Shown here: in pieces, positions 1,022 to 64,000 of the stretch
Position numbering within the stretch: the first letter of the stretch is position 1
How the letters are laid out: each line of letters opens with the position of its first letter
Origin: Labia minor
Lineage: Eukaryota > Arthropoda > Insecta > Dermaptera > Spongiphoridae
Direction of reading: 5' to 3'
Length of the DNA stretch: 64,000 bases
Assembly: GCA_963082975.1 (NCBI GenBank)
Contig: OY720350.1
Span: 23,035,875-23,099,874, forward strand
Notes under the pieces: generated by a model
Database searches by the model: none
What the model was told of the DNA's origin: nothing
The model's input: only the letters and a program-made list of their open reading frames with translations
Position numbers and translations under genes: made by a program

Positions 1022-1303
1022 ATGCGGGGCACCACCATCTTCTTCATCCTCTGGCTGCAGCTGGCCGCGTGCCGCCCTTCCGGAACCTACATGGACAACC
1101 AAACCCTCCTCGAGAAGAGACTCACCTTTTGCGAACAACTCGAAAATCCTAACCTGTTGTGTATGTCGCATTTCATTGTCTACATTAACATGCTCGACGA
1201 CGAAGACTCTTCCAAGGCAGGCTGTCGCGAGGTCCGAACAAATTTCATCATCAGACCGAAGGGCCAACGATCAAAGCGACCTCATCACGCTTGTGATTTG
1301 TAA
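1022..1303 (+). CDS. small predicted secreted cysteine-containing protein, copy 1
   Basis: Single-exon gene of 93 residues, family not recognised. The N-terminus looks like a signal peptide: MRG, a hydrophobic core IFFILWLQLAA at about 6-16, then C17. The remaining chain has Cys37, Cys47, Cys68 and Cys91, an N-glycosylation sequon at Asn26, an acidic DDED stretch near 59-62 and a basic C-terminus. RSKR at 83-86 is a furin-type site that would free a 7-residue tail containing Cys91. AATAAA at 1312-1317 follows the stop by nine bases. The coding region is roughly half G+C while its flanks are mostly A/T. The start chosen is the ATG inside the P1 target duplication. An in-frame TTG 18 bases upstream lies in transposon terminus and is not a likely start. 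A secreted effector, venom-type peptide or peptide precursor are all possible; none is shown. Confidence 0.75.
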   Translation: MRGTTIFFILWLQLAACRPSGTYMDNQTLLEKRLTFCEQLENPNLLCMSHFIVYINMLDDEDSSKAGCREVRTNFIIRPKGQRSKRPHHACDL

Positions 1304-1536
1304 ATTTTGTAAATAAATTTTTTAAATTAATATTTATATGTATATTGTGTTACGTATTTAAACTTAAATAACAAATAAAATACACTTACAACATTTAAAA
1401 GCAAAACTTTATTCCTGTTGTTTATTTATCGTGTACTCTATATAAACAGAATACCATGATCCAACTCCCCTCACTCCATTCCCTTACTGCAAACCACATA
1501 ACAATTCCTCCCTTTATCATAATTTTAACAAACAGT
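1304..1536. other. convergent 3' ends
   Basis: Short A/T-rich interval between the plus-strand secreted-protein gene and the minus-strand La fragment. It holds the gene's AATAAA signal and, on the minus strand, an AATAAA equivalent near 1405-1412, consistent with an ancestral minus-strand transcript ending here. Confidence 0.5.
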
Positions 1537-1731
1537 TCAATAAGCGATTAGTAAACAATTTAAACAATTTGCACAAAGAATAATACTTAAAAATTCTTTG
1601 ATATCTATTCGAGTGATTTCTTCTCCAGTAAATCCAGTTAAATGAATAATAGCATCCTTTGCTAAGTTTGGAACACATGTTTTTTGTTTTCCCTTATTCT
1701 TTAGAGCATACTTGTCTAAAGTGCGGCACAA
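1537..1731 (-). pseudogene. La protein C-terminal RRM fragment, copy 1
   Basis: Minus-strand open frame ending in TGA. The segment AIIHLTGFTGEEITRIDIKE resembles the beginning of the second (C-terminal) RRM of La/SSB proteins: a hydrophobic beta strand, then the (F/V)TGE and (R/I)(E/D)(D/I)(L/I)KE pattern. A lysine-rich linker precedes it. The match stops after the first helix, so the RRM is incomplete. It lies downstream, in the minus-strand sense, of a La RRM1 fragment at 2425-2700. The two are separated by transposon debris, which suggests one broken La gene or retrocopy. Recognition is by eye; the RRM1 piece is the firmer half. Confidence 0.5.
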
Positions 1732-1758
1732 AAGCCTTTGAGATATAATTTATATATA

Positions 1759-1875
1759 CAGTAATACCTCTCTATAAGGTCATTCTCAAAATACTCTTTA
1801 AAAACTATGTTTATTATTGTGAATTAAAATGAATGAAGTAACTATTAGACGTGACCTTATAGAGAGGTTTTACTC
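1759..1875. mobile_element. pogo/Tigger-like MITE, copy 1
   Basis: 117-bp element with ~24-bp terminal inverted repeats (CAGTAATACCTCTCTATAAG at the left; GAGTAAAACCTCTCTATAAG as the reverse complement of the right end), flanked by TA on both sides. The CAGTAAAACCTC terminus and TA target are typical of pogo/Tigger-type Tc1-mariner MITEs. The interior is A/T-rich with no coding capacity. Confidence 0.8.
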
Positions 1876-1939
1876 TACTTAATTTTATTTCCATTTCTTG
1901 AAAAAATGTTTATGTGCGTCCCAGCATAATTTTTTTTTT

Positions 1940-2160
1940 TTTTTTTTTTGCAACGTGGTCCACGAATGGTCATAGTTTAGACACCCATGCTTTAGATCAT
2001 TTTGAATTAACTTATTCTCCATTCGTTCTTTTCTTTTATCTTTCTTTCTAAGTTTCTTTCCATTTTTACCGACCAACGATAGTAAGGGAGGTATTGTTTT
2101 CACACCAAATTCCACATGAGGAGATTTTTTACATATCACCACGAATCGTGCACTGTGTAT
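1940..2160. other. unidentified remnant with hAT-like end and poly-T
   Basis: Begins beside a poly-T run (length differs between units). On the minus strand it reads GGGTGTCTAAACTATGACC, then CGTGGACCACG, a pattern common at hAT-type transposon ends. A minus-strand open frame (to 2142) with a lysine-rich stretch crosses it but I do not recognise the product. Around 2058-2085 the sequence (ACCGACCAACG, then GGGAGG) resembles 2957-2975 in the P-like MITE. This is also the site struck twice by P elements in unit 3. Confidence 0.4.
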
Positions 2161-2217
2161 TGGTTTTATCCTCGAGAAAAATCATCTTTATTAGTTTTTT
2201 CTTAATTTAAAATTATA

Positions 2218-2265
2218 TGACGTCATCCAGCCATTCATGACGTCACAGTCAGCGCCTCCTTATAT
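2218..2265 (+). promoter_or_regulatory. paired TGACGTCA (CRE-type) sites plus TATA-like sequence, copy 1
   Basis: Two perfect palindromes TGACGTCA start at 2218 and 2238, 20 bases apart (about two helical turns). They are followed about 12 bases later by CTTATATATTATAAAT. This spacing resembles a CREB/ATF-responsive core promoter reading rightward, but no credible coding region follows within 500 bases. It is conserved in all six units. Confidence 0.4.
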
Positions 2266-2424
2266 ATTATAAATCAAATAAAATTAAAAATATTTAAGTT
2301 ATATCCATATCTGTTTTTTATTACATTAATAGATATATTAAAATTATTTGAAATTGTTTCTGTAGCTAGAAATTAATTAACATCAAACCGTCGGTCGGTT
2401 CGGACCTGGCCAGAGGTGGTCAAC

Positions 2425-2700
2425 TTATTTAATTATCTCTTTTTCATTGTATTTGATTGAATCTATTTTTAAAAATTCTTCGGGTTTTTCTTTTTCTTTA
2501 AATAATACAAAAACGGATCCTTTAAAAATAGTTTTATTATCAATGTAAGTTCGCATCTGAATATTTTCTATAGCTCCATACGGAGCAAAAAATTTATAAA
2601 AGTTATCTTAGGTGAGACCTTCTTGTGGAAAATTATTCTAATCATTAACTCTTTGCGTTCTAATCATTATCTCTTTGCGCCTTTCCTCGTTCCATTTTAG
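2425..2700 (-). pseudogene. La protein first RRM fragment, copy 1
   Basis: The minus-strand translation contains NNFPQEGLT-stop-DNFYKFF, then APYGAIENIQMR, then IFKGSVFVLFKEKE. This is the La/SSB RRM1 pattern: a GFP-x-x-x-L-T-L-D entry, a PYG loop, the RNP2/helix region ending in ENIQMRR, and the RNP1 strand FKGSVFV. The fragment starts near 2700 with LKWNEERRKE and ends at TAA 2425-2427. Two in-frame stops (one before NNFPQ, one after GLT) break it, and the La motif upstream is absent. It is a pseudogene of an RNA-binding protein that in the nucleus binds the UUU-OH ends of RNA polymerase III transcripts. Confidence 0.8.
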
Positions 2701-2855
2701 GTAATATTAAAGATATATCTTATTTATAATAATTATGTAAAATCCTGATCAATAGTTTAGAATTTCTAATAATTTAATTGATATATATTATTATTTTCAA
2801 AACTTTAATCAAGTGAAAAAAATACAATTTTTTACTTTCCTCTCATTTTTCTATA

Positions 2856-4044: not shown

Positions 4045-4302
4045 ACGGATGGTATGTCGAGTTTGATATTCAAATAATTACAGGGAATTCGGAAGGCCTG
4101 TGGGAGGGGTCATTTTTTTTGCGGTGCCATCTATTGGGCGCCTGAAGAGTCAACCGTTTTCCTGTAACGCCATCTGGTGTTCGAGTTACACCGGTCCCAT
4201 TGAGATGACCACGGTTGTTCTATAGTTAAATTAAAGAGAGATGTATCCAAAAATTGAGAGAAACACTATACATCTACTCTACACAAAGAAAATTATTAAT
4301 AT

Positions 4303-4342
<40 letters not shown>

Positions 4343-5190: not shown

Positions 5191-5256
5191 AAATAATAAA
5201 TATGTATTAAATTAAAATATTAATATAAAAGTATAATATATTAAATAAATATTTAT

Positions 5257-8200
5257 TTTTATATTTTAACTCGTTTAAATATGTTTTATTAATTGGATCC
5301 ATTCATTATTTTGTATTTTCTTTCTTCAAGGAATGAAAACAGCAATCCAGGGATAAAATTCCTTAATAATAGTAAGCATTTGCCTTTCACACCTGAAATC
5401 AAAAAAAAAAATTCAATTAATATAAGACTAATTAGTTGGTAAATAAAAAGTACCCAAAATAATTATAATAACGAAAAAAAAATTAATTGCAAATCTTAGA
5501 GCTTGCTTATTTAGAAATTTTATATTTTAACTCGTTTAAATATGTTTTATTAATTGGATCCATTAATTATTTTGTATTTTCTTTCTTCAAAGAATGAAAA
5601 CAGCAATACAGGGATAAAATTCCTTAATAATAGTTGGCATTTGCCTTTCAAACCTGAAATGATAAAAAAAAATTCAATTAATATAAGAATAATTAGTTGG
5701 TAAATAAAAAGTACCCAAAATAATTTGATGAACAAACCTTGACCACGACAAAGAAAATAAATAAATAGAATAATTAATTGAATAATAATAATAATAATAA
5801 AAACTGTAAAAAGAATATCTGAAAAAAACTAAAAATGTTATAGAATTAAAAGAATATTGAAATGTTTGAAATAAGATATTTTTAATTTTGATTAATTTAA
5901 AAAGATTAAAGAAATAATAACATTTGTTCATAATTATCAAATTATAATGCAATCCAAAAAAAAAAATGAATGGCAAATCTTACAGTTTGCTTATTTAGAA
6001 ATTAAAACTTCAAAATGATAATAAAATATAAAAATTAACTGCAAATAAAATAGAAAAATTTAAAAGGTTAAAAGGATTTAAATCTTTGTAATAAGATATT
6101 TTTAATTTTGATTAATTTAAAAAGATAATAACATTTGTTCATAATGATCAAATTATAATGCAATCAAAAAAAAAAAATTAATGGCAAATCTTACAGCTTG
6201 CTTATTTAGAAATTAAAGCTTCAAAAATGATAATAAAATATAAAAATTAACTGCAAATAAAATAGAAAAATTTAAAAGGTTAAAAGGATTTAAATCTTTG
6301 TAATAAGATATTTTTAATTTTGATTAATTTAAAAAGATTAAAGAAATAATAAAATTTGTTCATATTCACCAAATTATAATGGAAACGAAAAAAAAATTAA
6401 TAGCAAATCTTAGAGCTTGCTTATTTAGAAATTTTATATTTTAACTCGTTTAAATATGTTTTATTAATTGGATCCATTAATTATTTTGTATTTTCTTTCT
6501 TCAAAGAATGAAAACAGCAATACAGGGATAAAATTCCTTAATAATAGTTAGCATTTGCCTTTCAAACCTGAAATGATAAAAAAAAATTCAATTAATATAA
6601 GAATAATTAGTTGGTAAATAAAATGTACCCAAAATAATTTGAAGAACAAACCTTGACCACGACAAAGAAAATAAATAAATAGAATAATTAATTGAATAAT
6701 AATAATAATAATAAAAACTGTAAAAAGAATATCTGAAAAAAACTAAAAATGTTATAGAATTAAAAGAATATTGAAATGTTTGAAATAAGATATTTTTAAT
6801 TTTGATTAATTTAAAAAGATTAAAGAAATGATAACATTTGTTCATAATTATCAAATTATAATGCAATCCAAAAAAAAAAAATTAATGGCAAAACATACAG
6901 TTTGCTTATTTAGAAATTAAAACTTCAAAATGATAATAAAATATAAAAATTAACTGCAAATAAAATAGAAAAATTTAAAAGGGTAAAAGGATTTAAATCT
7001 TTGTAATAAGATATTTTTAATTTTGATTAATTTAAAAAGATAATAACATTTGTTCATAATTATCAAATTATAATGCAATCCAAAAAAAAAAATTAATGGC
7101 AAATCTTACAGTTTGCTTATTTAGAAATTAAAACTTCAAAATGATAATAAAATATAAAAATTAACTGCAAATAAAATAGAAAAATTTAAAAGGTTAAAAG
7201 GATTTAAATCTTTGTAATAAGATATTTTTAATTTTGATTAATTTAAAAAGATTAAAGAAATAATAAAATTTGTTCATAATGATCAAATTATAATGCAATC
7301 AAAAAAAAAAATTAATGGCAAATCTTACAGCTTGCTTAGTTAGAAATTAAAGCTTCAAAAATGATAATAAAATATAAAAATTAACTGCAAATAAAATAGA
7401 AAAATTTAAAAGGTTAAAAGGATTTAAATCTTTGTAATAAGATATTTTTAATTTTGATTAATTTAAAAAGATTAAAGAAATAATAAAATTTGTTCATATT
7501 CACCAAATTATAATGGAAACGAAAAAAAAATTAATTGCAAATCTTAGAGCTTGCTTATTTAGAAATTTTATATTTTAACTCGATTAAATATGTTTTATTA
7601 ATTGGATCCATTAATTATTTTGTATTTTCTTTCTTCAAAGAATGAAAACAGCAATACAGGGATAAAATTCCTTAATAATAGTTGGCATTTGCCTTTCAAA
7701 CCTGAAATGATAAAAAAAAATTCAATTAATATAAGAATAATTAGTTGGTAAATAAAAAGTACCCAAAATAATTTGATGAAAAAACCTTGACCACGACAAA
7801 GAAAATAAATAAATAGAATAATTAATTGAATAATAATAATAATAATAAAAACTGTAAAAAGAATATCTGAAAAAAACTAAAAATGTTACAGAATTAAAAG
7901 AATATTGAAATGTTTGAAATAAGATATTTTTAATTTTGATTAATTTAAAAAGATTAAAGAAATAATAACATTTGTTCATAATTATCAAATTATAATGCAA
8001 TCCAAAAAAAAAAAATTAATGGCAAATCTTACAGTTTGCTTATTTAGAAATTAAAACTTCAAAATGATAATAAAATATAAAAAATAACTGCAAATAAAAT
8101 AGAAAAATTTAAAAGGTTAAAAGGATTTAAATCTTTGTAATAAGATATTTTTAATTTTGATTAATTTAAAAAGATTAAAGAAATAATAAAATTTGTTCAT

Positions 8201-9806
8201 AATGATCAAATTATAATGCAATCAAAAAAAAAATTAATGGCAAATCTTACAGCTTGCTTATTTAGAAATTAAAGCTTCAAAAATGATAATAAAATATAAA
8301 AATTAACTGCAAATAAAATAGAAAAATTTAAAAGGTTAAAAGGATTTAAATCTTTGTAATAAGATATTTTTAATTTTGATTAATTTAAAAAGATTAAAGA
8401 AATAATAAAATTTGTTCATATTCACCAAATTATAATGGAAACGAAAAAAAAATTAATTGCAAATCTTAGAGCTTGCTTATTTAGAAATTTTATATTTTAA
8501 CTCGTTTAAATATGTTTTATTAATTGGATCCATTAATTATTTTGTATTTTCTTTCTTCAAAGAATGAAAACAGCAATACAGGGATAAAATTCCTTAATAA
8601 TAGTTGGCATTTGCCTTTCAAACCTGAAATGATAAAAAAAAATTCAATTAATATAAGAATAATTAGTTGGTAAATAAAAAGTACCCAAAATAATTTGATG
8701 AACAAACCTTGACCACGACAAAGAACATAAATAAATAGAATAATTAATTGAATAATAATAATAATAATAAAAACTGTAAAAAGAATATCTGAAAAAAACT
8801 AAAAATGTTATAGAATTAAAAGAATATTGAAATGTTTGAAATAAGATATTTTTAATTTTGATTAATTTAAAAAGATTAAAGAAATAATAACATTTGTTCA
8901 TAATTATCAAATTATAATGCAATCCAAAAAAAAAAAATTAATGGCAAATCTTACAGTTTGCTTATTTAGAAATTAAAACTTCAAAATGATAATAAAATAT
9001 AAAAATTAACTGCAAATAAAATAGAAAAATTTAAAAGGTTAAAAGGATTTAAATCTTTGTAATAAGATATTTTTAATTTTGATTAATTTAAAAAGATTAA
9101 AGAAATAATAAAATTTGTTCATATTCACCATATTATAATGGAAACAAAAAAAAAATTAATTGCAAATCTTAGAGCTTGCTTATTTAGAAATTTTATATTT
9201 TAACTCGTTTAAATATGTTTTATTAATTGGATCCATTCATTATTTTGTATTTTCTTTCTTCAAGGAATGAAAACAGCAATCCAGGGATAAAATTCCTTAA
9301 TAATAGTAAGCATTTACCTTTCACACCTGAAATCATAAAAAAAAAAATTCAATTAATATAAGAATAATTAGTTGGTAAATAAAAAGTACCCAAAATAAGT
9401 TGATGAACAAACCTTGACCACGACAAAGAAAATAAATACATAGAATAATTAATTGAATAATAATAATAATAAAAACTGTAAAAAGAATATCTGAAAAAAA
9501 CTAAAAATTTTACAGAATTAAAAGAAGAATATTGAAATGTTTGAAATAAGATATTTTTAATTTTGATTAATTTAAAAAGATCAAAGAAATAATACCATTT
9601 GTTCATAATTATCAAATTATAATACAATCCAAAAAAAAAAAATTAATGGCAAATCTTACAGCTTGCTTATTTAGAAATTAAAGCTTCAAAAATGATAATA
9701 AAATATAAAAATTAACTGCAAATAAAATACGACATTTAAAATCTTTATAAAAAGATATTTTTAATTTTGATGAATGCAAAAAGATTAAAACAAATAATAA
9801 GATTTG
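5257..9806. repeat. nested satellite block, unit 1
   Basis: Long repeats marked by GGATCC (5295, 5556, then about 6470, 7604, 8526, 9230) spaced 261, ~914, ~1134, ~922 and ~705 bp. Each contains one to several ~200-bp monomers with the shared sequence GGCAAATCTTACAGYTTGCT, an oligo-A run and TTTTTAATTTTGATTAATTT. The last monomer is diverged (GATGAATGCAAAAAGATTAA). The sequence is extremely A/T-rich. Minus-strand open frames of 61-100 codons recur but are by-products of low-complexity sequence. Confidence 0.95.
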
Positions 9807-10304: not shown

Positions 10305-10600
10305 CAACCCCCCGACACAGGCCCAGAGCTTTCGAAAACATGTTAAGAACATAGGGGCCACAAGAGGCGCTGCTGGCACTAATTTAAATCCGAAAGTTTT
10401 TCATAAACCAACCAACAGATGCCGCACCAGGCTCATTTTTAAATTCATGAAATCCATTTGAATCATTTTAAATATTGTGAAAGTGTCGTAAACATCTGAT
10501 CATCTGATCCATCTGATCTTCAAGCGTCTAACATCTTAAAACAATTTGAAACAATTGTAAATATTTTATACTGATCCGACGCCCTCCAATTGCGATCAAT

Positions 10601-13600
10601 ATGTATAATGGTAAAGTAAGTATAATTAATATAATTTTACTATTATTGATGATTATTTTTCGCGATAAAGTTATATAATATCTGTACATATAAATAAATT
10701 TTTGATGTTGCAGTTTGTAGATTGTATTCATAAGAATTGTGTTACAAATTCTCAGCCTGGAGAAGAACGGGGACACATGTTCTGGTTGCCAACAAATGAT
10801 TTTTTAAGAGAAAAATGGTTAAAACAAATGGGCAGGCTTGACTTGCTTGCCCTACCTTATAATAGTCTAGCAAAATATCGTGTATGCAACCTTCATTTTA
10901 ATGATTATGATTTCTACACACCTGAAAAGAAGAAATTAATTCGTGGAAGGATACCCTTGGATATAAATCAAGATGGTAGGTTTTGTGATATTTAATAATT
11001 TAATATCCATGGTTGTGAAAAACAGAGGAATATATGCCGGAGTTGTATAAATTTTACAAATCTTTTATAATATTTTTACAGCATCACGTGTTAATACTAC
11101 AAGTGATTTTGGAATGACCTCAGAAGAGCCAAATCTTTTTGAATCCAGTTCTGGAAGATGTACGTATTATATTTTTAATGTTTTAAACTCAATTCAATTT
11201 TCTTAATCTATATTATGTATCCATATGCTTGGTGCAAATTTATCTTTTAAAATTTACTGTTGTCGTTCACTAAAAAATGTATTAATAATAAAAGAAAATA
11301 ATTTCAATAATTTTTTTTTATATTTTTTTTAGCAACACCTATTACTCCATCTGTTAGCTTGGCCTTCGAGGAGCCAAATATTTTTGAATCCAGTTCTGGT
11401 AGATGTACGTATTATATTTTTAATGTTTTAAACTCAATTCAATTTTCTTAATCTATATTATGTATCCATATGCTTGGTGCAAATTTATCTTTTAAAATTT
11501 ACTGTTGTCGTTCACTAAAAAATGTATTAATAATAAAAGAAAATAATTTCAATAATTTTTTTTTATATTTTTTTTAGCAACACCTATTACTCCATCTGTT
11601 AGCTTGGCCTTCGAGGAGCCAAATATTTTTGAATCCAGTTCTGGTAGATGTACGTATTATATTTTTAATGTTTTAAACTCAATTCAATTTTCTTAATCTA
11701 TATTATGTATCCATATGCTTGGTGCAAATTTATCTTTTAAAATTTACTGTTGTTGTTGACTTAAAAATGTATTAATAATAAAAGAAAATAATTTCAATAA
11801 TTTTTTTTAATATTTTTTCTAGCAACACCTGTTACTCCATCTGTTAGCTTGGCCTTCGAGGAGCCAAATCTTTTTGAATCCAGTTCTGGGAGATGTACGT
11901 ATTATATTTTTAATAAAATTCATTAATCTTCTCTTAACTTTGAATAGATTTGCTAAAATGATTTAAAATAAAATTTTAGTTCGCTTAGGCTTTTCTGTAT
12001 TAATTCATTGGAGTTTTTTATTTTAAACTTAATTAATTTTTGCAGGTGATCCGCGGGACATACACCTACAAGATCTCGGTGTTTCTAGAATAGAAAATTT
12101 ATCTCCCAGGAAGAAAAGATTGTACCAAAGGCTCAACGAGGTCAAGCGACTATTGAACCAAGATAAAGAGAGAAAGAGAATAATTTCACAAGAATGTAAG
12201 CGATCAAAAAAACTTCTTCATGAATCATTTCAAAATATTAATGATATCCATAATCTACCTGCTCCTCTCTCAACTTTTGTTTTATCCACCCTTAAAAATT
12301 TCTCTGTGGTTAAAAATTCCCGCCGGTATACCCAGGAAGAAAAAGCCCTTTTCCTCTCCATATACAAACATGGCCCTAGGTGCTATCGATATTTACAAAC
12401 AATCTTATGTCTTCCTTCGGTGAAAACTCTTGAACGATCGCTAAGCAATTTCGAAATGACAACAGGCATCAACAGTCAATTGTTTAGCTATTTGAACCTC
12501 GTATCCGATGGTCTGACTTCCAAGGAACGCTTTTGTTGTTTACTTTTCGATGAAATGGAGATTTCAAAATTTTTAGAGTTAAAAATAACCAAAGCTTCTT
12601 GGAAGGTACATGGTTTTGTAGAATCGGGGGCTGAAAGTGAGCTTAAACTCGCTGATCATGCTTTGGTGTTTATGCTTCGAGGCATTTCTAGTATATGGAA
12701 ACAGCCTATAGCTTATTTCTTTACACGCAATGCGGGCCATTTAACTTTTAAGAACTTGATCTGCGAGGTTGTGCAGGCTGTTCATGAAAAGACCAAATTT
12801 AGAATCGTTGCCTCTGTCAGTGACTGTGCTCCGTGGAATGCTGCTGCCATTGATTTGCTTTCAAAGAACCCTAAGAAAGCAGAGCACACCTATGTATATA
12901 ATATTGGAGATTATGAAATTGTTCATATTTTTGATCCTCCTCATCTGGTCAAATGTATGAGGAACAATTTTATTAACAAAGATATTATGTACAAAGGCAT
13001 GAAGGCAAAATGGAGCGACATAAAGAAAGCGTACGATTTTGACGTAGCACCTCCTGGGAGATTCAGGACCACAAAACTCACTAATGTCCATGTGAATCCA
13101 ACAAATCGTGATAAAATGACAGTAAAACTTGCTACGCAGGTGTTTAGTCGCTCCGTTGCAGGTACGCTTGCTTTGTTAACGAAAACAAAAGCATTGGACG
13201 CAAACGGCACGTGTGAGTTTGTTGGTTTCATGAACGACCTGTTCGACTCGCTTAATACAGACTATAAATCTAAAAACCCATTATCCAGACCATTGACTGA
13301 TGAATCGCCTCATCTTGAATTTTTGTTGGATGCGAGGCGGTCGTTGAGGGATATTAAATTTTTTGAAAAGGATACGCGCAAGGAAGCTACTTACCCTCCA
13401 TTTATGAAATTATTTATTGCATCAATCAGCAACGTAGTGAATTTGTGGAAATCTCTAAAGAAAATTGGTTTTGAAGAGCTTGCTTTAAGATCTTTTAACC
13501 AAGATCCTTTAGAGTATTTATTTAGTGTTGCGAGAGGGTTGTGTGGGGGCAATACGAAACCATCAACTTTACAATTCGCCGATGCCTTTAAAACTGTTAT

Positions 13601-14231
13601 TTTGCAAAATACTGCAAAAAGCAGTTCAGGTACGAATTGTGAAGATGATGGTGAACGTATCCTTATTTCCTACAAGCATCTATTAAATCCACAATTAACT
13701 TCTCCCGAACCAAAACCTAACAATCCTTTCCCTCCAACACTCCTATCTATCCCCTTGGGTACTCCCGCACACCCTGATTGGAATACAAACAACGTTGCTG
13801 GTACTTTGATAAGACAACTGTTGATAAATGAATGTCGTTTCTGCGTGAATTTCGCATGCGGGGAAAGCAGAAATGATATTCACAAATCAACAGAATTGCG
13901 GCAAAATGAGGGATGTTTTGAAAAACATCCCTCAGATGATTTCAAAAAACTAATATCTAAAGAGATGGGCAAGTTTTACCATAATATCCCTAGCATCATC
14001 CATCTTTCAAATATCCTCTCTTCTTCCTTTTCAGATCCCTTCTTCGAAACTGACTTTTGTCCCTTGCATGGTGATGATTTCGCCAAAAGATGTAGCCTTC
14101 TTTTACATAAAAAAATGTTGCTACATTTTATTAAATTGTGTAACAATATGATATGTAAGAAGGATACATCTTCTACAGAAATCATCAACATTTTCGTCAA
14201 ATACATTCTATATTCTCGATCATCTAGGTAA
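10601..14231 (+). CDS. P-element THAP-domain transposase, 918 residues, seven exons
   Basis: It catalyses cut-and-paste transposition in the nucleus. Exons: 10601-10615, 10714-10975, 11082-11159, 11333-11404, 11578-11649, 11823-11894, 12046-14231. Their 2757 nt form exactly 919 codons including TAA, every intron is GT-AG, and there are no stops. The THAP zinc finger is at about 6-90 (Cys9, Cys14, Cys63, His66; Trp40; RGRIP at its end) and would bind the element's ends. A low-complexity linker from repeated 72-nt exons follows. A basic coiled coil lies at about 216-255. The RNase H-like core has candidate acidic residues Asp359 (LLFDEM), Asp450 (SVSDCAPWN) and Glu680 (QDPLEYLFS), and FDPPHLVKCMRNN at about 486-498. 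The length is close to human THAP9. The start was chosen by the short MxxxK exon also seen in P2 and P3. The family call is firm; activity is inferred. Confidence 0.88.
11082..11894 (+). repeat. tandemly repeated exon-intron module inside the transposase gene
   Basis: A ~245-bp module (72-nt exon plus intron) is present at 11333, 11578 and 11823, with a diverged relative at 11082. Each exon encodes a Pro/Ser-rich piece ending EEPNxFESSSGR. The first two introns are almost identical. All these exons begin and end in the same phase, so copy-number change or skipping keeps the frame. P2 carries only one such exon (23808-23888). Confidence 0.9.
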
Positions 14232-14420
14232 ATCAACGTCCTTGTGTAATTTTTATTTAAGTGAGAAATTTAATATAATATGTTTAAAGAAAAATATGTA
14301 TAAAAGATTTGTTTACAAATGAGATACACATCATTATTGTTAATGATATTTTGTAATAATCTATTTTCAAATAAATATGTCACATACAACATAATTCTTT
14401 TCTTCTAGACATGCAAATTA

Positions 14421-14563
14421 TGAAATTTTTCAGTTAAGTGAAAAATTATTTATTTGGGGACAAGACATACATTTCAGCAATTTTTTTAAAAAAAAAAAAA
14501 TTATTTCTGAAATGTCAGTTTTAGCTCTAAATAAATAATTTTTCACTTAACTGAAAAATTTCA
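14421..14563 (+). repeat. long hairpin in P1 3' region (copy b)
   Basis: Arms 14421-14455 and 14529-14563 are 35-base perfect complements (start TGAAATTTTTCAGTTAAGTG). An inner partial pairing extends the stem toward the oligo-A loop. Confidence 0.92.
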
Positions 14564-14726
14564 TAATTTTTTCATTCTTCCCGCTCCTCTCATTCAAATG
14601 ATTCAAAATGGATTTTAAAAATGGTGCCAGGCCGGTTTTTTCACATCATAGTTCATATAGGGGTCACTTTTTAGCAGCAGCGCTAAACGCTGTTTCACGA
14701 ATTTAGCATTGCGTGTCGGGGGGTTG

Positions 14727-15008
14727 ATGCGGGGCACCACCATCTTCTTCATCCTCTGGCTGCAGCTGGCCGCGTGCCGCCCTTCCGGAACCTACATGGA
14801 CAACCAAACCCTCCTCGAGAAGAGACTCACCTTTTGCGAACAACTCGAAAATCCTAACCTGTTGTGTATGTCGCATTTCATTGTCTACATTAACATGCTC
14901 GACGACGAAGACTCTTCCAAGGCAGGCTGTCGCGAGGTCCGAACAAATTTCATCATCAGACCGAAGGGCCAACGATCAAAGCGACCTCATCACGCTTGTG
15001 ATTTGTAA
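14727..15008 (+). CDS. small predicted secreted cysteine-containing protein, copy 2
   Basis: Nucleotide-identical to copy 1 as read here. The ATG lies in the right-hand P1 target duplication, so the normal 5' leader is 4.4 kb away beyond P1. Transcription would need a promoter in the P1 3' region or splicing across the element. The frame is intact: signal peptide, five cysteines and the RSKR site. Confidence 0.75.
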   Translation: MRGTTIFFILWLQLAACRPSGTYMDNQTLLEKRLTFCEQLENPNLLCMSHFIVYINMLDDEDSSKAGCREVRTNFIIRPKGQRSKRPHHACDL

Positions 15009-23261: not shown

Positions 23262-23507
23262 CAGGGGGGGGTCTCTCTTACGGCAGAGAAATTTCCAGTG
23301 TGACAATGCATGCATGCATCACTCGAGGCCGCTCGAGGCGCTGCTGTTGCTAGCACTAATTTTAATTCGGTTTGTTTCGGTTATCCGAAAACACCCGAAA
23401 ACATTTAACAACAGCTAGTGACTTGTGGACAACGAGCACTCGTCCCATTTAAAATATCTCTGCCAGGCATACGTAACGTGATCTGTCGCTGTCCAATTGC
23501 GTGCAAT

Positions 23508-24184
23508 ATGGTTCCTAAAGTAAGTTTAATTAATATTTTTACTATTATTGATGATTATTTTTTATTATAAAGTTATATAATATATGTACATATAAATAAA
23601 TTTTTGATTTTGCAGGTTTTTAATTGTATTCAGAAAGATTGTATTACGAATTCTCTACCTGAAGGAGAACGAGGACACTTGTTCTATTTTCCAAGGTGTA
23701 ATTTTTTAAGAGTGGGTAAAACAACAATAATTTAAAGTTGTTGTTTACCAAAAAATATATTAATAATAAAAGAAAATAATTTTATTAATTTTTTTAAATA
23801 TTTATAGCAACACCTGTTAATACTACATCAGATGGTTTGGGCTTGGTATCAGAGAAGACTGATCTTTTCGAATCCAGCCCTGCGAGAAGTATGTATTATA
23901 TTTTTTAATAAAATTCATTAATCTTCTCCTAACTTTAAATAGATTTTTTATAATGATTTAAAATAAATTTTTAGTTTGCTTAGGCTTTTCTGTATTAATT
24001 CTTTGGAATTTTTTTTTAAACTTAATTAATTTTTGCAGGTGTTCAGCGGGACATACGCCTATACCATCTGAATTTTCTTCAAGAATAAAATATTTATCTC
24101 CCATGAAGAAAAGATTGTACCAAAGGTTCACCGAGGTCAAGCGACTATTGAAGCAAAATAGACATCAACAGTCAATTGATTAAT
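23508..24184 (+). pseudogene. deleted THAP transposase gene of P2
   Basis: Exon 1 (23508-23519, MVPK) and exon 2 (from 23616) encode CIQKDC and a THAP start to PRCNFLR. The rest of the zinc finger, including the Cys-x-x-His pair, is then deleted and the sequence jumps into intron. A linker exon (23808-23888) and the first part of the last exon (24039 onward, to LLKQN) remain. A second deletion then joins directly to the HQQSID sequence that in P1 lies about 80 residues further on, and a stop follows. The pattern is like the internal deletions of known non-autonomous P elements. Confidence 0.85.
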
Positions 24185-25710
24185 TGAAAAATAGTGTAAA
24201 TTTTATTTATGTGAAAAATTTTATATAATGTTTTATAAAGTTTTATATAATTATTATTGTATAATTGAAAAATAGTGTAAATTTTATTTATATGAGTAAT
24301 TTTATACAATTTAAAAAAATGCATTCGTAAAGGGTTAGATTATAAATAAAATTAACATTATTTTTATATTATTATTGTATGATTGAAAAATAGTGTAAAT
24401 TTTATTTATGAGAAAAATTTTATATAATGTTTTATAAAGTTTTATATAATTATTATTGTATAATTGAAAAATAGTGTAAATTTTATTTATATGAGTAATT
24501 TTATACAATTTAAAAAAATGCATTCGTAAAGGGTTAGATTATAAATAAAATTAACATTATTTTTATATTATTATTGTATGATTGAAAAATAGTGTAAATT
24601 TTATTTATGAGAAAAATTTTATATAATGTTTTATAAAGTTTTATATAATTATTATTGTATAATTGAAAAATAGTGTAAATTTTATTTATATGAGTAATTT
24701 TATACAATTTAAAAAAATGCATGCGTAAAGGGTTAGATTATAAATAAAATTAACATTATTTTTATATTATTATTGTATGATTGAAAAATAGTGTAAATTT
24801 TATTTATGAGAAAAATTTTATATAATGTTTTATAAAGTTTTATATAATTATTATTGTATAATTGAAAAATAGTGTAAATTTTATTTATATGAGTAATTTT
24901 ATACAATTTAAAAAAATGCATTCGTAAAGGGTTAGATTATAAATAAAATTAACATTATTTTTATATTATTATTGTATGATTGAAAAATAGTGTAAATTTT
25001 ATTTATGAGAAAAATTTTATATAATGTTTTATAAAGTTTTATATAATTATTATTGTATAATTGAAAAATAGTGTAAATTTTATTTATATGAGTAATTTTA
25101 TACAATCTAAAAAAATGCATGCGTAAAGGGTTAGGGTTGTATTATTATTGTATGATTGAAAAATAGTGTAAATTTTATTTATGTGAAAAATTTTATATAA
25201 TGTTTTATAAAGTTTTATATAATTATTATTGTATAATTGAAAAATAGTGTAAATTTTATTTATATGAGTAATTTTATACAATTTAAAAAAATGCATGCGT
25301 AAAGGGTTAGGGTTGTATTATTATTGTATGATTGAAAAATAGTGTAAATTTTATTTATGTGAAAAATTTTATATAATGTTTTATAAAGTTTTATATAATT
25401 ATTATTGTATAATTGAAAAATAGTGTAAATTTTATTTATATGAGTAATTTTATACAATTTAAAAAAATGCATGCGTAAAGGGTTAGGGTTGTATTATTAT
25501 TGTATGATTGAAAAATAGTGTAAATTTTATTTATGTGAAAAATTTTATATAATGTTTTATAAAGTTTTATATAATTATTATTGTATAATTGAAAAATAGT
25601 GTAAATTTTATTTATATGAGTAATTTTATACAATTTAAAAAAATGCATGCGTAAAGGGTTAGGGTTGTATTATTATTGTATGATTGAAAAATAGTGTAAA
25701 TTTTATTTTT
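24184..25710. repeat. minisatellite inside P2 (199-bp then 176-bp period)
   Basis: The shared core GAAAAATAGTGTAAATTTTA occurs twice per period. Four-plus copies of 199 bp (period seen at 24335, 24534, 24733, 24932) contain a 23-bp segment (ATTATAAATAAAATTAACAT...) that is missing from the following 176-bp copies (25084, 25260, 25436). In those the join reads GGGTTAGGGTTG. The core resembles the P1 sequence just after the transposase stop (GTGTAATTTTTATTTAAGTG). Confidence 0.93.
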
Positions 25711-25910
25711 GTATTTTATTATTATTATTATTTTATTTTTACAGAAATTTTATATAAGGTGTTTAAAGAAAAATATGTATAAAGGATTTGTTTACAAATG
25801 AGATAAACATCATTATTGTTAATGATATTTTGTAATAATCTATTTTCAAATAAATATGCCACATACAACATTATTCTTTTATTATATCCATGAAAATTAT
25901 TAAAATTTTC

Positions 25911-26040
25911 ACTTAAGTGAAAAATTATTTATTTTGTGATAAGACCAACAATTAAGCAATTTTCTAAAAAAAAAAAATTTATTTCTGAAATGTCTGTTTT
26001 AGCTTTAAATAAATAATTTTTCACTTAACTGAAAAATTTC
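25911..26040 (+). repeat. P2 3' hairpin
   Basis: The arm CTTAAGTGAAAAATTATTT and its inverse near 26007-26035 pair imperfectly at the base, in the same position relative to the right end as in P1. Confidence 0.8.
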
Positions 26041-26195
26041 ATAATTTTTTCATTCCTCCCGCTCTCATTCATTCAAAATAGATTTTAAAAATGGTGCCAG
26101 GCCGGCCGGTTTTTTTCTCAATTAGTTCGTGCATGCATCCGCATAGCAGCGCCAAACGCTGTTTCAAAAAAATATCATTGCGTGTCCACCCCCTG

Positions 26196-26229: not shown

Positions 26230-26511
26230 ATGCGGGGCACCACCATCTTCTTCATCCTCTGGCTGCAGCTGGCCGCGTGCCGCCCTTCCGGAACCTACAT
26301 GGACAACCAAACCCTCCTCGAGAAGAGACTCACCTTTTGCGAACAACTCGAAAATCCTAACCTGTTGTGTATGTCACATTTCATTGTCTACATTAACATG
26401 CTCGACGACGAAGACTCTTCCAAGGCAGGCTGTCGCGAGGTCCGAACAAATTTCATCATCAGACCGAAGGGCCAACGATCAAAGCGACCTCATCACGCTT
26501 GTGATTTGTAA
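26230..26511 (+). CDS. small predicted secreted cysteine-containing protein, copy 3
   Basis: Same 93-residue product. One silent change: Ser49 is TCA (A at 26376) where the other copies have TCG. P2 sits 34 bases upstream of the ATG, leaving a short piece of native 5' UTR. Confidence 0.75.
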   Translation: MRGTTIFFILWLQLAACRPSGTYMDNQTLLEKRLTFCEQLENPNLLCMSHFIVYINMLDDEDSSKAGCREVRTNFIIRPKGQRSKRPHHACDL

Positions 26512-40955: not shown

Positions 40956-41445
40956 TGTTGATATTTACGATTAAACTTAATTTAAATTCTTAGATTATAT
41001 ATATTGTATAATAATTTAACAATTTCCATGATGCTTACCTTTAGAATTCTTAAATAGGAAAAGTTGGTTGTTGTGTATGTGTCAGAAGTCAGAATGGAAT
41101 AGAGAGAAATAATTTATATTTTGGTTGCTAAGTTCGGAATCGAGAAATAATTTATATTATCGTTGCTAATATCCACTGTAATTTTTTGGTTTATCTCAGG
41201 AAGTTCAAAACCTATTTTCATTTTTATCTTAAAATGTGTTTATATTGTTTTATGTTGTTATTTATTTATTATTTAATAATTAAATTTATTTCTCTACTTA
41301 GGTTTTTTACTGTTTCAGAATTTAACATTACGTGTCCACCCCCTGACACAGCAGCGCCCCTCCACCGTTGCTTACCTTACCTTGGCTGTTGCCTGTTGCC
41401 TCGGTCATTTGGAGACCAGCCTTTGATCCACTTTGATCGTCCACC
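40956..41445 (+). promoter_or_regulatory. leader upstream of gene copy 4 (uninterrupted)
   Basis: The intact leader with no P insertion. Both P1 and P2 empty sites can be read here: GAGACCAG at 41412-41419 and ATGCGGGG at 41446. Old P-type terminus at 41327-41345; acceptor-like TTTTTTACTGTTTCAG just before it. Confidence 0.5.
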
Positions 41446-41727
41446 ATGCGGGGCACCACCATCTTCTTCATCCTCTGGCTGCAGCTGGCCGCGTGCCGCC
41501 CTTCCGGAACCTACATGGACAACCAAACCCTCCTCGAGAAGAGACTCACCTTTTGCGAACAACTCGAAAATCCTAACCTGTTGTGTATGTCGCATTTCAT
41601 TGTCTACATTAACATGCTCGACGACGAAGACTCTTCCAAGGCAGGCTGTCGCGAGGTCCGAACAAATTTCATCATCAGACCGAAGGGCCAACGATCAAAG
41701 CGACCTCATCACGCTTGTGATTTGTAA
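41446..41727 (+). CDS. small predicted secreted cysteine-containing protein, copy 4
   Basis: Identical 93-residue product with uninterrupted native 5' leader, ATG context CCACCATGC and AATAAA nine bases after the stop. With copies 5 and 6 this is the arrangement most likely to be expressed normally. Confidence 0.78.
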   Translation: MRGTTIFFILWLQLAACRPSGTYMDNQTLLEKRLTFCEQLENPNLLCMSHFIVYINMLDDEDSSKAGCREVRTNFIIRPKGQRSKRPHHACDL

Positions 41728-41960
41728 ATTTTGTAAATAAATTTTTTAAATTAATATTTATATGTATATTGTGTTACGTATTTAAACTTAAATAACAAAT
41801 AAAATACACTTACAACATTTAAAAGCAAAACTTTATTCCTGTTGTTTATTTATCGTGTACTCTATATAAACAGAATACCATGATCCAACTCCCCTCACTC
41901 CATTCCCTTACTGCAAACCACATAACAATTCCTCCCTTTATCATAATTTTAACAAACAGT

Positions 41961-51148: not shown

Positions 51149-51638
51149 TGTTGATATTTACGATTAAACTTAATTTAAATTCTTAGATTATATATATTGT
51201 ATAATAATTTAACAATTTCCATGATGCTTACCTTTAGAATTCTTAAATAGGAAAAGTTGGTTGTTGTGTATGTGTCAGAAGTCAGAATGGAATAGAGAGA
51301 AATAATTTATATTTTGGTTGCTAAGTTCGGAATCGAGAAATAATTTATATTATCGTTGCTAATATCCACTGTAATTTTTTGGTTTATCTCAGGAAGTTCA
51401 AAACCTATTTTCATTTTTATCTTAAAATGTGTTTATATTGTTTTATGTTGTTATTTATTTATTATTTAATAATTAAATTTATTTCTCTACTTAGGTTTTT
51501 TACTGTTTCAGAATTTAACATTACGTGTCCACCCCCTGACACAGCAGCGCCCCTCCACCGTTGCTTACCTTACCTTGGCTGTTGCCTGTTGCCTCGGTCA
51601 TTTGGAGACCAGCCTTTGATCCACTTTGATCGTCCACC
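51149..51638 (+). promoter_or_regulatory. leader upstream of gene copy 5
   Basis: Uninterrupted, same as 40956-41445; old P-type terminus at 51520-51538. Confidence 0.5.
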
Positions 51639-51920
51639 ATGCGGGGCACCACCATCTTCTTCATCCTCTGGCTGCAGCTGGCCGCGTGCCGCCCTTCCGG
51701 AACCTACATGGACAACCAAACCCTCCTCGAGAAGAGACTCACCTTTTGCGAACAACTCGAAAATCCTAACCTGTTGTGTATGTCGCATTTCATTGTCTAC
51801 ATTAACATGCTCGACGACGAAGACTCTTCCAAGGCAGGCTGTCGCGAGGTCCGAACAAATTTCATCATCAGACCGAAGGGCCAACGATCAAAGCGACCTC
51901 ATCACGCTTGTGATTTGTAA
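51639..51920 (+). CDS. small predicted secreted cysteine-containing protein, copy 5
   Basis: Identical product and, as read here, identical coding DNA to copies 1, 2 and 4. Confidence 0.78.
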   Translation: MRGTTIFFILWLQLAACRPSGTYMDNQTLLEKRLTFCEQLENPNLLCMSHFIVYINMLDDEDSSKAGCREVRTNFIIRPKGQRSKRPHHACDL

Positions 51921-52153
51921 ATTTTGTAAATAAATTTTTTAAATTAATATTTATATGTATATTGTGTTACGTATTTAAACTTAAATAACAAATAAAATAC
52001 ACTTACAACATTTAAAAGCAAAACTTTATTCCTGTTGTTTATTTATCGTGTACTCTATATAAACAGAATACCATGATCCAACTCCCCTCACTCCATTCCC
52101 TTACTGCAAACCACATAACAATTCCTCCCTTTATCATAATTTTAACAAACAGT

Positions 52154-54920: not shown

Positions 54921-54958
<38 letters not shown>

Positions 54959-55806: not shown

Positions 55807-55872
55807 AAATAATAAATATGTATTAAATTAAAATATTAATATAAAAGTATAATATATTAAATAAATATTTAT

Positions 55873-61292: not shown

Positions 61293-61782
61293 TGTTGATA
61301 TTTACGATTAAACTTAATTTAAATTCTTAGATTATATATATTGTATAATAATTTAACAATTTCCATGATGCTTACCTTTAGAATTCTTAAATAGGAAAAG
61401 TTGGTTGTTGTGTATGTGTCAGAAGTCAGAATGGAATAGAGAGAAATAATTTATATTTTGGTTGCTAAGTTCGGAATCGAGAAATAATTTATATTATTGT
61501 TGCTAATATCCACTGTAATTTTTTGGTTTATCTCAGGAAGTTCAAAACCTATTTTCATTTTTATCTTAAAATGTGTTTATATTGTTTTATGTTGTTATTT
61601 ATTTATTATTTAATAATTAAATTTATTTCTCTACTTAGGTTTTTTACTGTTTCAGAATTTAACATTACGTGTCCACCCCCTGACACAGCAGCGCCCCTCC
61701 ACCGTTGCTTACCTTACCTTGGCTGTTGCCTGTTGCCTCGGTCATTTGGAGACCAGCCTTTGATCCACTTTGATCGTCCACC
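61293..61782 (+). promoter_or_regulatory. leader upstream of gene copy 6
   Basis: Uninterrupted; old P-type terminus at 61664-61682. Single-base differences from other leaders (for example ATTATTGTTGC for ATTATCGTTGC). Confidence 0.5.
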
Positions 61783-62064
61783 ATGCGGGGCACTACCATC
61801 TTCTTCATCCTCTGGCTGCAGCTGGCCGCGTGCCGCCCTTCCGGAACCTACATGGACAACCAAACCCTCCTCGAGAAGAGACTCACCTTTTGCGAACAAC
61901 TCGAAAATCCTAACCTGTTGTGTATGTCGCATTTCATTGTCTACATTAACATGCTCGACGACGAAGACTCTTCCAAGGCAGGCTGTCGCGAGGTCCGAAC
62001 AAATTTCATCATCAGACCGAAGGGCCAACGATCAAAGCGACCTCATCACGCTTGTGATTTGTAA
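61783..62064 (+). CDS. small predicted secreted cysteine-containing protein, copy 6
   Basis: Same 93-residue product. One silent change: Thr4 is ACT (T at 61794) where the others have ACC. Confidence 0.78.
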   Translation: MRGTTIFFILWLQLAACRPSGTYMDNQTLLEKRLTFCEQLENPNLLCMSHFIVYINMLDDEDSSKAGCREVRTNFIIRPKGQRSKRPHHACDL

Positions 62065-62297
62065 ATTTTGTAAATAAATTTTTTAAATTAATATTTATAT
62101 GTATATTGTGTTACGTATTTAAACTTAAATAACAAATAAAATACACTTACAACATTTAAAAGCAAAACTTTATTCCTGTTGTTTATTTATCGTGTACTCT
62201 ATATAAACAGAATACCATGATCCAACTCCCCTCACTCCATTCCCTTACTGCAAACCACATAACAATTCCTCCCTTTATCATAATTTTAACAAACAGT

Positions 62298-62492
62298 TCA
62301 ATAAGCGATTAGTAAACAATTTAAGCAATTTGCACAAAGAATAATACTTAAAAATTCTTTGATATCTATTCGAGTGATTTCTTCTCCAGTAAATCCAGTT
62401 AAATGAATAATAGCATCCTTTGCTAAGTTTGGAACACATGTTTTTTGTTTTCCCTTATTCTTTAGAGCATACTTGTCTAAAGTGCGGCACAA
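62298..62492 (-). pseudogene. La C-terminal RRM fragment, copy 6
   Basis: Same frame, with one base difference (TTTAAGCAATTT for TTTAAACAATTT on the plus strand) near the 3' end. Confidence 0.5.
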
Positions 62493-62519
62493 AACCCTTT
62501 GAGATATAATTTATATATA

Positions 62520-62636
62520 CAGTAATACCTCTCTATAAGGTCATTCTCAAAATACTCTTTAAAAACTATGTTTATTATTGTGAATTAAAATGAATGAAGT
62601 AACTATTAGACGTGACCTTATAGAGAGGTTTTACTC
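62520..62636. mobile_element. pogo/Tigger-like MITE, copy 6
   Basis: Same termini, flanked by TA. Confidence 0.8.
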
Positions 62637-62977
62637 TACTTAATTTTATTTCCATTTCTTGAAAAAATGTTTATGTGCGTCCCAGCATAATTTTTTTTTT
62701 TTTTTTTTTGCAACGTGGTCCACGAATGGTCATAGTTTAGACACCCATGCTTTAGATCATTTTGAATTAACTTATTCTCCATTCGTTCTTTTCTTTTATC
62801 TTTCTTTCTAAGTTTCTTTCCATTTTTACCGACCAACGATAGTAAGGGAGGTATTGTTTTCACACCAAATTCCACATGAGGAGATTTTTTACATATCACC
62901 ACGAATCGTGCACTGTGTATTGGTTTTATCCTCGAGAAAAATCATCTTTATTAGTTTTTTCTTAATTTAAAATTATA

Positions 62978-63025
62978 TGACGTCATCCAGCCATTCATGA
63001 CGTCACAGTCAGCGCCTCCTTATAT
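62978..63025 (+). promoter_or_regulatory. paired TGACGTCA sites plus TATA-like sequence, copy 6
   Basis: Unchanged from copy 1. Confidence 0.4.
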
Positions 63026-63184
63026 ATTATAAATCAAATAAAATTAAAAATATTTAAGTTATATCCATATCTGTTTTTTATTACATTAATAGATATATTA
63101 AAATTATTTGAAATTGTTTCTGTAGCTAGAAATTAATTAACATCAAACCGTCGGTCGGTTCGGACCTGGCCAGAGGTGGTCAAC

Positions 63185-63460
63185 TTATTTAATTATCTCT
63201 TTTTCATTGTATTTGATTGAATCTATTTTTAAAAATTCTTCGGGTTTTTCTTTTTCTTTAAATAATACAAAAACGGATCCTTTAAAAATAGTTTTATTAT
63301 CAATGTAAGTTCGCATCTGAATATTTTCTATAGCTCCATACGGAGCAAAAAATTTATAAAAGTTATCTTAGGTGAGACCTTCTTGTGGAAAATTATTCTA
63401 ATCATTAACTCTTTGCGTTCTAATCATTATCTCTTTGCGCCTTTCCTCGTTCCATTTTAG
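63185..63460 (-). pseudogene. La first RRM fragment, copy 6
   Basis: Same fragment and stops. Confidence 0.8.
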
Positions 63461-63615
63461 GTAATATTAAAGATATATCTTATTTATAATAATTATGTAA
63501 AATCCTGATCAATAGTTTAGAATTTCTAATAATTTAATTGATATATATTATTATTTTCAAAACTTTAATCAAGTGAAAAAAATACAATTTTTTACTTTCC
63601 TCTCATTTTTCTATA

Positions 63616-64000
63616 GCACAGAGTATCCGTACACAGAGGTGGACACAATGCTATTTTTTTTCGTCACTAGTGCTGGCAGGGATGGCAGACAGGTTGGACA
63701 TGTGTGAGCGTTTTTACCGACCGACGAGGGAGGCATTTTTAAATTATTTTTGAATGAATAAGGGGAATTTAAAAATTATTTATTGAGATATAAAATTAGC
63801 ATTACAGAAATCAAATATGCTTTTTTCAAAAATGTTAGTTTTATATCCAAATAAATAATTTTTAAATTAACAGAAAACTCTACCTACTTGTATGTAATTT
63901 ACATAAATAAAATAAACGAATAATGTTCTTGTTAATATTTAATATGTATGGATTAAAAATTATCTTCAATGTCAATATATGAAACGAGAGAAACACATAC
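63616..64000 (-). mobile_element. P-like MITE, copy 6 (cut by window end)
   Basis: Left 19-bp end and the hairpin are present; the right end lies outside the window. Confidence 0.6.

What the first reader, a model, noticed from the sequence alone, without database searches (positions are those of the whole stretch)
1022..64000. Six-fold tandem amplification of an unrecognised secreted-protein gene with protein-level identity
Seen: six copies of a 93-codon frame in 61 kb. Only two base differences were noticed among them and both are silent (26376, 61794). The surrounding DNA shows indels, microsatellite changes and transposon insertions. The coding region is far more G+C-rich than its surroundings. 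Inference: recent amplification, gene conversion or purifying selection holds the protein constant. Tandem amplification of small cysteine-containing secreted proteins is a familiar pattern for insect effectors, venom peptides and dosage-selected genes, but the family is unknown to me.
Basis: partly seen in the sequence, partly recalled or inferred. Interest (0 to 1): 0.8.

Follow-up and report, generated by a model that had tools for sequence, protein, structure and literature searches.

The report
Earwig array of BMP-gene fragments
In the lesser earwig, a piece of a growth-factor gene was copied to another chromosome, repeated more than twenty times, and turned into a family of small possibly secreted proteins whose end part changes fast; whether they do anything is not known.

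Summary
The six copies are real and differ only by two silent bases. They are the middle of a larger array: 23 open copies plus one 5'-truncated copy over ~200 kb of chromosome 6 (an autosome) of the lesser earwig Labia minor, identified by exact contig lengths. The gene derives from exon 1 of glass bottom boat (gbb, BMP5-8 type), whose full gene lies on chromosome 4. Copies keep the signal peptide and a shortened N-terminal prodomain, mostly also some 5' UTR, and lack the ligand domain. The claimed protein constancy is only recency: within the window's subtype, coding DNA varies no less than its flanks. Between types A, B/C, M and D the opposite holds: codons 33 to the end differ by 9-27%, while codons 1-32, leader and flank differ by about 0-2% (B and C differ by only 2%). 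Amino-acid changes exceed neutral expectation in a post hoc test (P about 0.001-0.01). Best reading: a young, lineage-specific family with uniform signal peptide and fast-changing mature part, perhaps first a BMP decoy. Main rival: a non-functional array with flanks levelled by conversion. No transcript data were available. Origin is near certain; function is open.

The parts
1022..1303 (+). gbb-derived ORF, type A, copy 1 of the window; leader lost to a P-type transposon
14727..15008 (+). gbb-derived ORF, type A, copy 2; P-type transposon sits exactly at its start codon
26230..26511 (+). gbb-derived ORF, type A, copy 3 (one silent change at 26376); second transposon in its 5' UTR
41446..41727 (+). 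gbb-derived ORF, type A, copy 4, leader intact
51639..51920 (+). gbb-derived ORF, type A, copy 5, leader intact; the type-A reference copy in the comparisons (position 99513 of the joined array)
61783..62064 (+). gbb-derived ORF, type A, copy 6 (one silent change at 61794), leader intact
61656..61782 (+). leader of an intact copy: predicted splice acceptor (CAG ending 61655), transposon-end-like bridge, then sequence homologous to the gbb 5' UTR
   Evidence: splice site predicted by eye only
61879..62061 (+). fast-changing part of the ORF (codon 33 to the end, without the stop): 9-27% different between types A, B/C, M and D (B vs C 2.4%), flanks about 1% or less in substitutions
10305..14726 (+). 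P-type (THAP plus TNP-like) DNA transposon, 14-bp terminal inverted repeats, 8-bp target duplication ATGCGGGG, inserted at the start codon
23262..26195 (+). second transposon of 2934 bp, 8-bp target duplication GAGACCAG, in the 5' UTR of copy 3

Best explanation
SHOWN: part of exon 1 of the earwig gbb gene (about 80 bp of 5' UTR, signal peptide, N-terminal prodomain; the gene is on chromosome 4) exists as tandem copies on chromosome 6, without 9 and 54 coding bases, in at least 24 copies of at least four sequence types (A, B/C, M, D). Units are nearly identical outside the gene, and so are codons 1-32; codons 33 to the end are strongly diverged between the types, mosaic in M, and changed mostly at the amino-acid level. 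INFERRED: the copies are expressed as small secreted proteins (signal peptide plus a mature part of about 65-85 residues). Unequal crossing-over and gene conversion copy and level the units, while selection for new mature sequences keeps the 3' coding part different. INFERRED, weaker: the starting activity was interference with Gbb/BMP, since an N-terminal prodomain segment without a ligand can in principle bind the mature dimer; the present forms have lost the lasso region (anatomy recalled) and much of that similarity and may act on something else.
For: Origin: the C5 paralogue aligns over residues 1-84; its exon 1 matches PF00688 TGFb_propeptide, E=1e-23; a further propeptide stretch and both pieces of the TGF-beta domain lie downstream within 15 kb; the first ligand piece's best PDB matches are BMP7 and BMP6. 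Array. Fast-changing core: A vs B1, B2, C and M gives 14/156, 14/156, 18/183 and 41/167 core differences against 3, 1, 5 and 6 of ~600 (leader), 1, 1, 1 and 0 of 96 (codons 1-32) and 17, 15, 22 and 17 of ~2385 (flank), Fisher P 1.8e-10 to 1.7e-38. D: core 26% different from B2 (B1 and B2 cores are identical) while its first 639 flank bases are 99.8% identical to B1. Amino-acid excess: dN/dS above 1 in 13 of 15 core pairs; on the two non-overlapping contrasts gbb-C and M-D, 2 synonymous of 29 changes, P 0.0009-0.0097 over six mutation models. 23 of 23 full copies are open; 20 of 23 keep the leader with the acceptor.
Against: No transcript or peptide data could be seen. The stretch is poor in stop codons, so open frames are weak evidence: simulated neutral change keeps the frame open in 7-58% of runs. 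A and B end in a frameshifted tail. Core pairs C-B and B-M have dN/dS 0.28 and 0.95; over all 81 codons A-C is not distinguishable from neutral (P 0.12-0.22), and M-D alone reaches P below 0.05 in only 2 of 6 models. The synonymous rate in the core is also raised, up to 0.28 in B-M, which selection on protein alone does not give; old segments moved by conversion do. The flank is not perfectly even (A-C: 6 of 100 in the bin at +1300). The choice of contrasts was made after seeing the data. No Pfam family matches the array proteins; no homologue was found in a word-limited search of 5.8 billion proteins; the fold prediction is uninformative, pLDDT 46.
Confidence: 0.5

Rival explanations
1. Non-functional array: a gbb fragment was carried along in a tandemly amplifying, satellite- and transposon-rich region. 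Several old fragment copies diverged without constraint; recent unequal crossing-over and conversion levelled most of the unit, and the core differences are patches of old sequence that have not yet been levelled.
For: Within subtypes coding and flank vary alike. The synonymous rate is also raised in the core. M is a mosaic of A-like and D-like sequence. Three of 23 copies lost the leader without any change of the protein. Tails are frameshifted. Stops are rare in several frames of this G+C-rich stretch.
Against: The diverged patch begins near codon 33 and ends near the stop codon in A, B/C and M, and D begins there, whereas codons 1-32 (signal peptide) are as uniform as the flanks. Amino-acid changes exceed the neutral share on pooled contrasts. 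All 23 full copies are open.
Confidence: 0.38
2. The array makes small RNAs that act on gbb (in the manner of Su(Ste)-like repeats, recalled), so the reading frame is irrelevant.
For: The type-C copy compared shares a 50-base exact match with gbb exon 1, and all ten C ORFs are identical; A and B share 34 and 30.
Against: All 23 copies have the same orientation, so there is no hairpin source; antisense transcription is unknown; long exact matches are expected for any young duplicate.
Confidence: 0.05
3. One reading: a dosage-selected secreted effector whose protein is held constant by purifying selection or conversion.
For: Eight type-A copies with one amino-acid difference in one copy, and ten type-C copies identical.
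Against: Flanks are equally constant (type C, 0 of 1000 flank sites vary), and the protein differs strongly between types.
Confidence: 0.05

Closest known systems
glass bottom boat (gbb/60A), BMP5-8 type ligand; parent gene on chromosome 4 of the same genome
   Same: 5' UTR part, start context, signal peptide, N-terminal prodomain; 67-82% DNA identity in the long aligned stretches
   Different: Array copies lack the rest of the prodomain and the ligand domain; 9- and 54-base deletions; tails out of frame in A and B
Other insect gbb duplicates (screw; gbb1/gbb2 of Tribolium, mosquitoes, Nasonia; passages of PMC3744649)
   Same: Lineage-specific duplication of gbb
   Different: Those are one extra gene (full-length ligands, recalled); here a truncated, ligand-less fragment exists in more than 20 copies
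Prodomain-derived inhibitory peptides of myostatin (21-23 residues, alpha-1 helix; abstract and passages of PMC6472743)
   Same: An N-terminal prodomain piece without ligand can block a TGF-beta family ligand
   Different: Those are laboratory peptides of another ligand; the earwig proteins have altered that segment, and binding is untested
Secreted multigene families with uniform signal peptides and variable mature parts (venom peptides, antimicrobial and seminal proteins; recalled, no call)
   Same: Pattern of uniform signal peptide and flanks with a variable mature part
   Different: No sequence relation was found; no tissue is known

Membership tests
TGF-beta/BMP ligand family (gbb) | C-terminal cystine-knot ligand domain (PF00019) | tested here: not met
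   None of the 9 PF00019 matches found genome-wide is on the array's contig C9; the parent gbb on C5 has it in two pieces
TGF-beta/BMP ligand family (gbb) | TGFb_propeptide (PF00688) recognisable | tested here: not met
   Array proteins A and B, C, M: 0 families; none of the 5 genome matches is on C9. Parent exon E=1e-23
TGF-beta/BMP ligand family (gbb) | Descent from gbb | tested here: met
   DNA homology to gbb exon 1 in the array copies, in 20 of 23 with the 5' UTR part; the only match outside the array is gbb
BMP antagonist (works-like) | Binds mature BMP and lowers signalling | not testable with these tools
   Needs binding or reporter assays
Diversifying secreted peptide family (works-like) | Uniform signal peptide, variable mature region, dN/dS above 1 | tested here: inconclusive
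   Pattern met; dN/dS above 1 in 13 of 15 pairs, pooled P 0.0009-0.0097, post hoc
Diversifying secreted peptide family (works-like) | Expression and secretion | not testable with these tools
   No RNA-seq or proteome available here
Sex-chromosome ampliconic gene | Location on X or Y | tested here: not met
   C9 = 60,004,694 bp = chromosome 6, an autosome; X = 76,888,567 bp = C10

The most novel reading that the evidence does not exclude
A developmental growth factor's prodomain has been turned, within one earwig lineage, into a large, fast-diversifying family of secreted peptides: the signal peptide and the repeat unit are kept uniform by copying, while the mature part is shuffled between divergent sequence types (M is an A-like/D-like mosaic; D is a start-less copy that begins at the border of the variable part and could act as a donor cassette). 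The peptides would serve an arms race, for example seminal, immune or maternal secretions, or a conflict over BMP dosage.
Probability: 0.17. Interest if true: 0.8.

Novelty: new variant of a known kind. Interest (0 to 1): 0.52.

Why it matters
It shows how a conserved developmental gene can seed a new secreted-protein family: only the 5' end of a BMP gene was copied, giving a ready-made signal peptide, and tandem copying did the rest. If expressed, it would be a natural ligand-less BMP prodomain family and a case of a signal peptide being recruited for fast-evolving proteins. It also shows that perfect protein identity among tandem copies can be pure recency, and that comparison with flanks and with the other subtypes reverses the conclusion.

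Tried and rejected
Rejected: purifying selection on the window copies. A control with all eight A copies and 1100 flank bases was spoiled because copy 26230 is not collinear beyond ~950 bp (214 of 1068 sites), and so were the 3-kb versions for A and C; they are not used. Rejected: sex-linked amplicon (autosome). Rejected: a second gbb on X at C10:38.89 Mb; its two exons are only 37-41% identical to Drosophila Gbb and look activin-like (recalled). Rejected as chance: NCBIfam EexN, E=0.028, below cut-off; a phage match, E=0.9; an IMG/VR match over 28 residues, 50% identical; a PDB match to ThsB, E=0.35.

Led nowhere: PDB search with the array protein and with gbb exon 1, Rfam, tRNA, genome contigs, two protein searches with the array proteins, single-sequence structure prediction with pLDDT 46, a parasitoid/venom paper search, passages on pea-aphid dpp/gbb (PMC12247715), telomere motif at four chromosome ends, absent (PMC11829193 calls these ends truncated). 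Not obtained: a genome-wide DNA search with the unit's flank or leader, and COX1, because the tool stayed busy. Weak argument dropped: that most coding indels are in frame (9, 54, 12, 3, 24 in frame; 8 in A relative to gbb, and 32 in B relative to C by hand count, not); too few and partly nested.
Full report
WHAT WAS CLAIMED AND WHAT IS THERE. The window holds six 93-codon frames at 1022, 14727, 26230, 41446, 51639 and 61783, all on +, with two silent differences at 26376 and 61794. Listed self-alignments over 3 kb are 97.5-99.9% identical.

WHERE THE WINDOW LIES. It is G000:C9:23035875-23099874 in a genome of 604,477,936 bases held in 71 contigs. Contig lengths 83,479,239 (C5) and 60,004,694 (C9) and 76,888,567 (C10) equal chromosomes 4, 6 and X of the lesser earwig Labia minor (Dermaptera, Spongiphoridae) to the base (PMC11829193, passages incl. 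Table 1). The genome note gives 604.50 Mb, 78 scaffolds, 26-26.5% G+C per chromosome and an unassembled Y (PMC11937785, sections 4 and 5 read). The array is therefore on an autosome, chromosome 6.

THE ARRAY IS LARGER THAN THE WINDOW. A six-frame search finds 23 copies on C9 from 23,008,868 to 23,194,678 plus one match on C5 (lower bounds). In a 230-kb stretch without N all 23 have open frames of four kinds: A (8 copies, 93 aa), B (4, 88 aa), C (10, 103 aa), M (1, 92 aa). A 24th copy, D, near C9:22,996,890, lacks the 5' part and is open to the same kind of stop as M. C units are spaced ~6.05 kb (7 of 9 spacings) or 8.8 kb (2 of 9) and are 99.6-100% identical over their collinear 1.5-4 kb; one pair of 26.9-kb stretches is 99.98% identical. 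With ~10-kb reads the exact copy number is uncertain.

THE GENE IS A PIECE OF gbb. The C5 match reads MRGTSILFILWLHLAACRRSGIYIDNGVDQTLLEKALTRRERSQVELEILNLLGMSHRPEMNRRPELARSAPQFLLDIYKAMLDDEDSS.... It is TGFb_propeptide, E=1e-23. A further propeptide stretch (two matched pieces, each in an open frame of 206 aa, probably one exon) and the TGF-beta domain in two pieces follow within 15 kb. So C5:80.148-80.163 Mb is gbb. DNA homology with the array runs from 80 bp upstream of the ATG to near the end of exon 1, 67-82% identical in the long stretches. Shared losses of 9 and 54 coding bases remove GVD and 18 residues (the latency-lasso region by recalled BMP anatomy). In A (8 bases lost relative to gbb) and B (32 lost relative to C by hand count) the tail is out of the gbb frame, so the RSKR motif there arose by frameshift. 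Exon 1 of gbb has 57% G+C, which explains the G+C-rich coding stretch.

NO CONSTANCY BEYOND RECENCY. Among 7 A copies (26230 dropped for lost collinearity) 2 of 282 coding and 13 of 2998 flank sites vary; among 4 B copies 3 of 267 and 20 of 2976; among 10 C copies 0 of 312 and 0 of 1000. All 8 A copies together vary at 3 coding sites, two silent and one amino-acid change in the copy at C9:23016013. Coding DNA is not more conserved than flank. Three of the six window copies lost their leader: a P-type transposon (THAP and TNP-like domains) at 10305-14726 lies exactly at the start codon of copy 14727 with an 8-bp duplication that restores ATGCGGGG, a duplicate of its end precedes copy 1022, and a second 2934-bp element lies at 23262-26195 in the 5' UTR of copy 26230. 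Their proteins are unchanged all the same.

A FAST-CHANGING CORE. Between types the picture inverts. A against B1, B2, C and M: codons 33-end 14/156, 14/156, 18/183, 41/167; codons 1-32 1, 1, 1 and 0 of 96; 600-bp leader 3, 1, 5 and 6; 2.4-kb flank 17, 15, 22 and 17 (Fisher P 1.8e-10, 2.5e-11, 1.0e-11, 1.7e-38). Of all 10 pairs, nine show the excess, two of them weakly (B1-C and B2-C, 4/168 in the core, P 0.02 and 0.01), and one, B1-B2, shows none (0/168). B and C are thus one core type. D differs from A, B2, C and M in the core by 26, 26, 20 and 15%, while its first 639 flank bases are 99.8% identical to B1 and carry 1-7 mismatches and a few gaps to the others. M joins an A-like segment to a D-like segment. 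By Nei-Gojobori counting, core dN/dS exceeds 1 in 13 of 15 pairs (exceptions C-B 0.28, B-M 0.95). On the two non-overlapping contrasts gbb-C (15 N: 1 S) and M-D (12 N: 1 S) the pooled share of synonymous change is below neutral, P 0.0009-0.0097 over six mutation models; gbb-C alone P 0.013-0.053, M-D alone 0.037-0.11. Over all 81 codons gbb-A gives P 0.004-0.019, gbb-M 0.011-0.049, gbb-C 0.018-0.058, gbb-B 0.04-0.11, A-C 0.12-0.22. These tests were chosen after seeing the data.

HOW I READ IT. Selection for new mature sequences, with tandem copying that levels everything else, fits the coincidence of the variable patch with the post-signal coding part. But the core's synonymous rate is raised too (up to 0.28, B-M), which points to old segments preserved or moved by conversion; that alone, without any function, is the main rival. 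Open frames do not decide: the stretch is poor in stops. 20 of 23 copies keep a leader with a predicted acceptor, whose bridge shares CGTGTCCACCCCCTG with the end of the second transposon; so transcription is possible but unshown. A prodomain piece can inhibit a related ligand (myostatin, 21-23 residues; PMC6472743 abstract and passages), which makes a BMP-decoy origin conceivable. For the present proteins it is a guess: no Pfam match, no informative fold, no homologue found.

NOVELTY. Known insect gbb duplicates are single extra genes such as scw and gbb2 (PMC3744649, passages). Paper searches (only the listed titles and abstract starts were seen, 10-15 of 18-504 papers each, apart from the papers named) showed no report of this array or of a ligand-less gbb family in earwigs; the library lacks most subscription journals. 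P0001, 85% identical to gbb exon 1, shows a near relative's gbb with the residues H, R, I, I, E, I, G, K and A where the array has Q, P, T, M, Q, N, C, I and N, so those changes arose on the array's side; at codon 33 P0001 has G like most array types, so there it is gbb of L. minor that may have changed.

Noticed in passing
window 10305-14726 and 1-1021: P-type DNA transposon with THAP and TNP-like domains, perfect 14-bp inverted repeats, inserted exactly at a start codon; the 8-bp target duplication restores the ATG. The unit carrying it was then duplicated (inferred).
   Followed up: yes
window 23262-26195: Second transposon (CAGGGGG ends, 8-bp duplication GAGACCAG) in the 5' UTR of copy 3.
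   Followed up: partly
window 41234-41740, 51427-51933, 61571-62077: A 168-aa frame overlaps the gene in another reading frame; the G+C-rich stretch is open in several frames, so it is probably not a gene.
   Followed up: partly
window 5461-9192 and its repeats up to 61092: Satellite of about 220 bp, nested in ~0.9-kb higher-order repeats, between the genes; it yields many tyrosine-rich antisense 85-aa frames that are repeat artefacts.
   Followed up: no
C9:22996881-22997060: Copy D lacks start codon and signal peptide and begins at the border of the variable part; flank nearly identical to other units, core 15-26% different.
   Followed up: yes
L035-L038 (ends of chromosomes 6 and 4): No TTCGG telomere repeats in the outermost 1.2 kb; L036-L038 show a shared AT-rich satellite by eye.
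   Followed up: partly
C9:23134512-23194412: Ten type-C copies with identical ORFs in units of 6.05 or 8.8 kb; nearly identical stretches longer than the reads, so possible collapse or expansion in the assembly.
   Followed up: no
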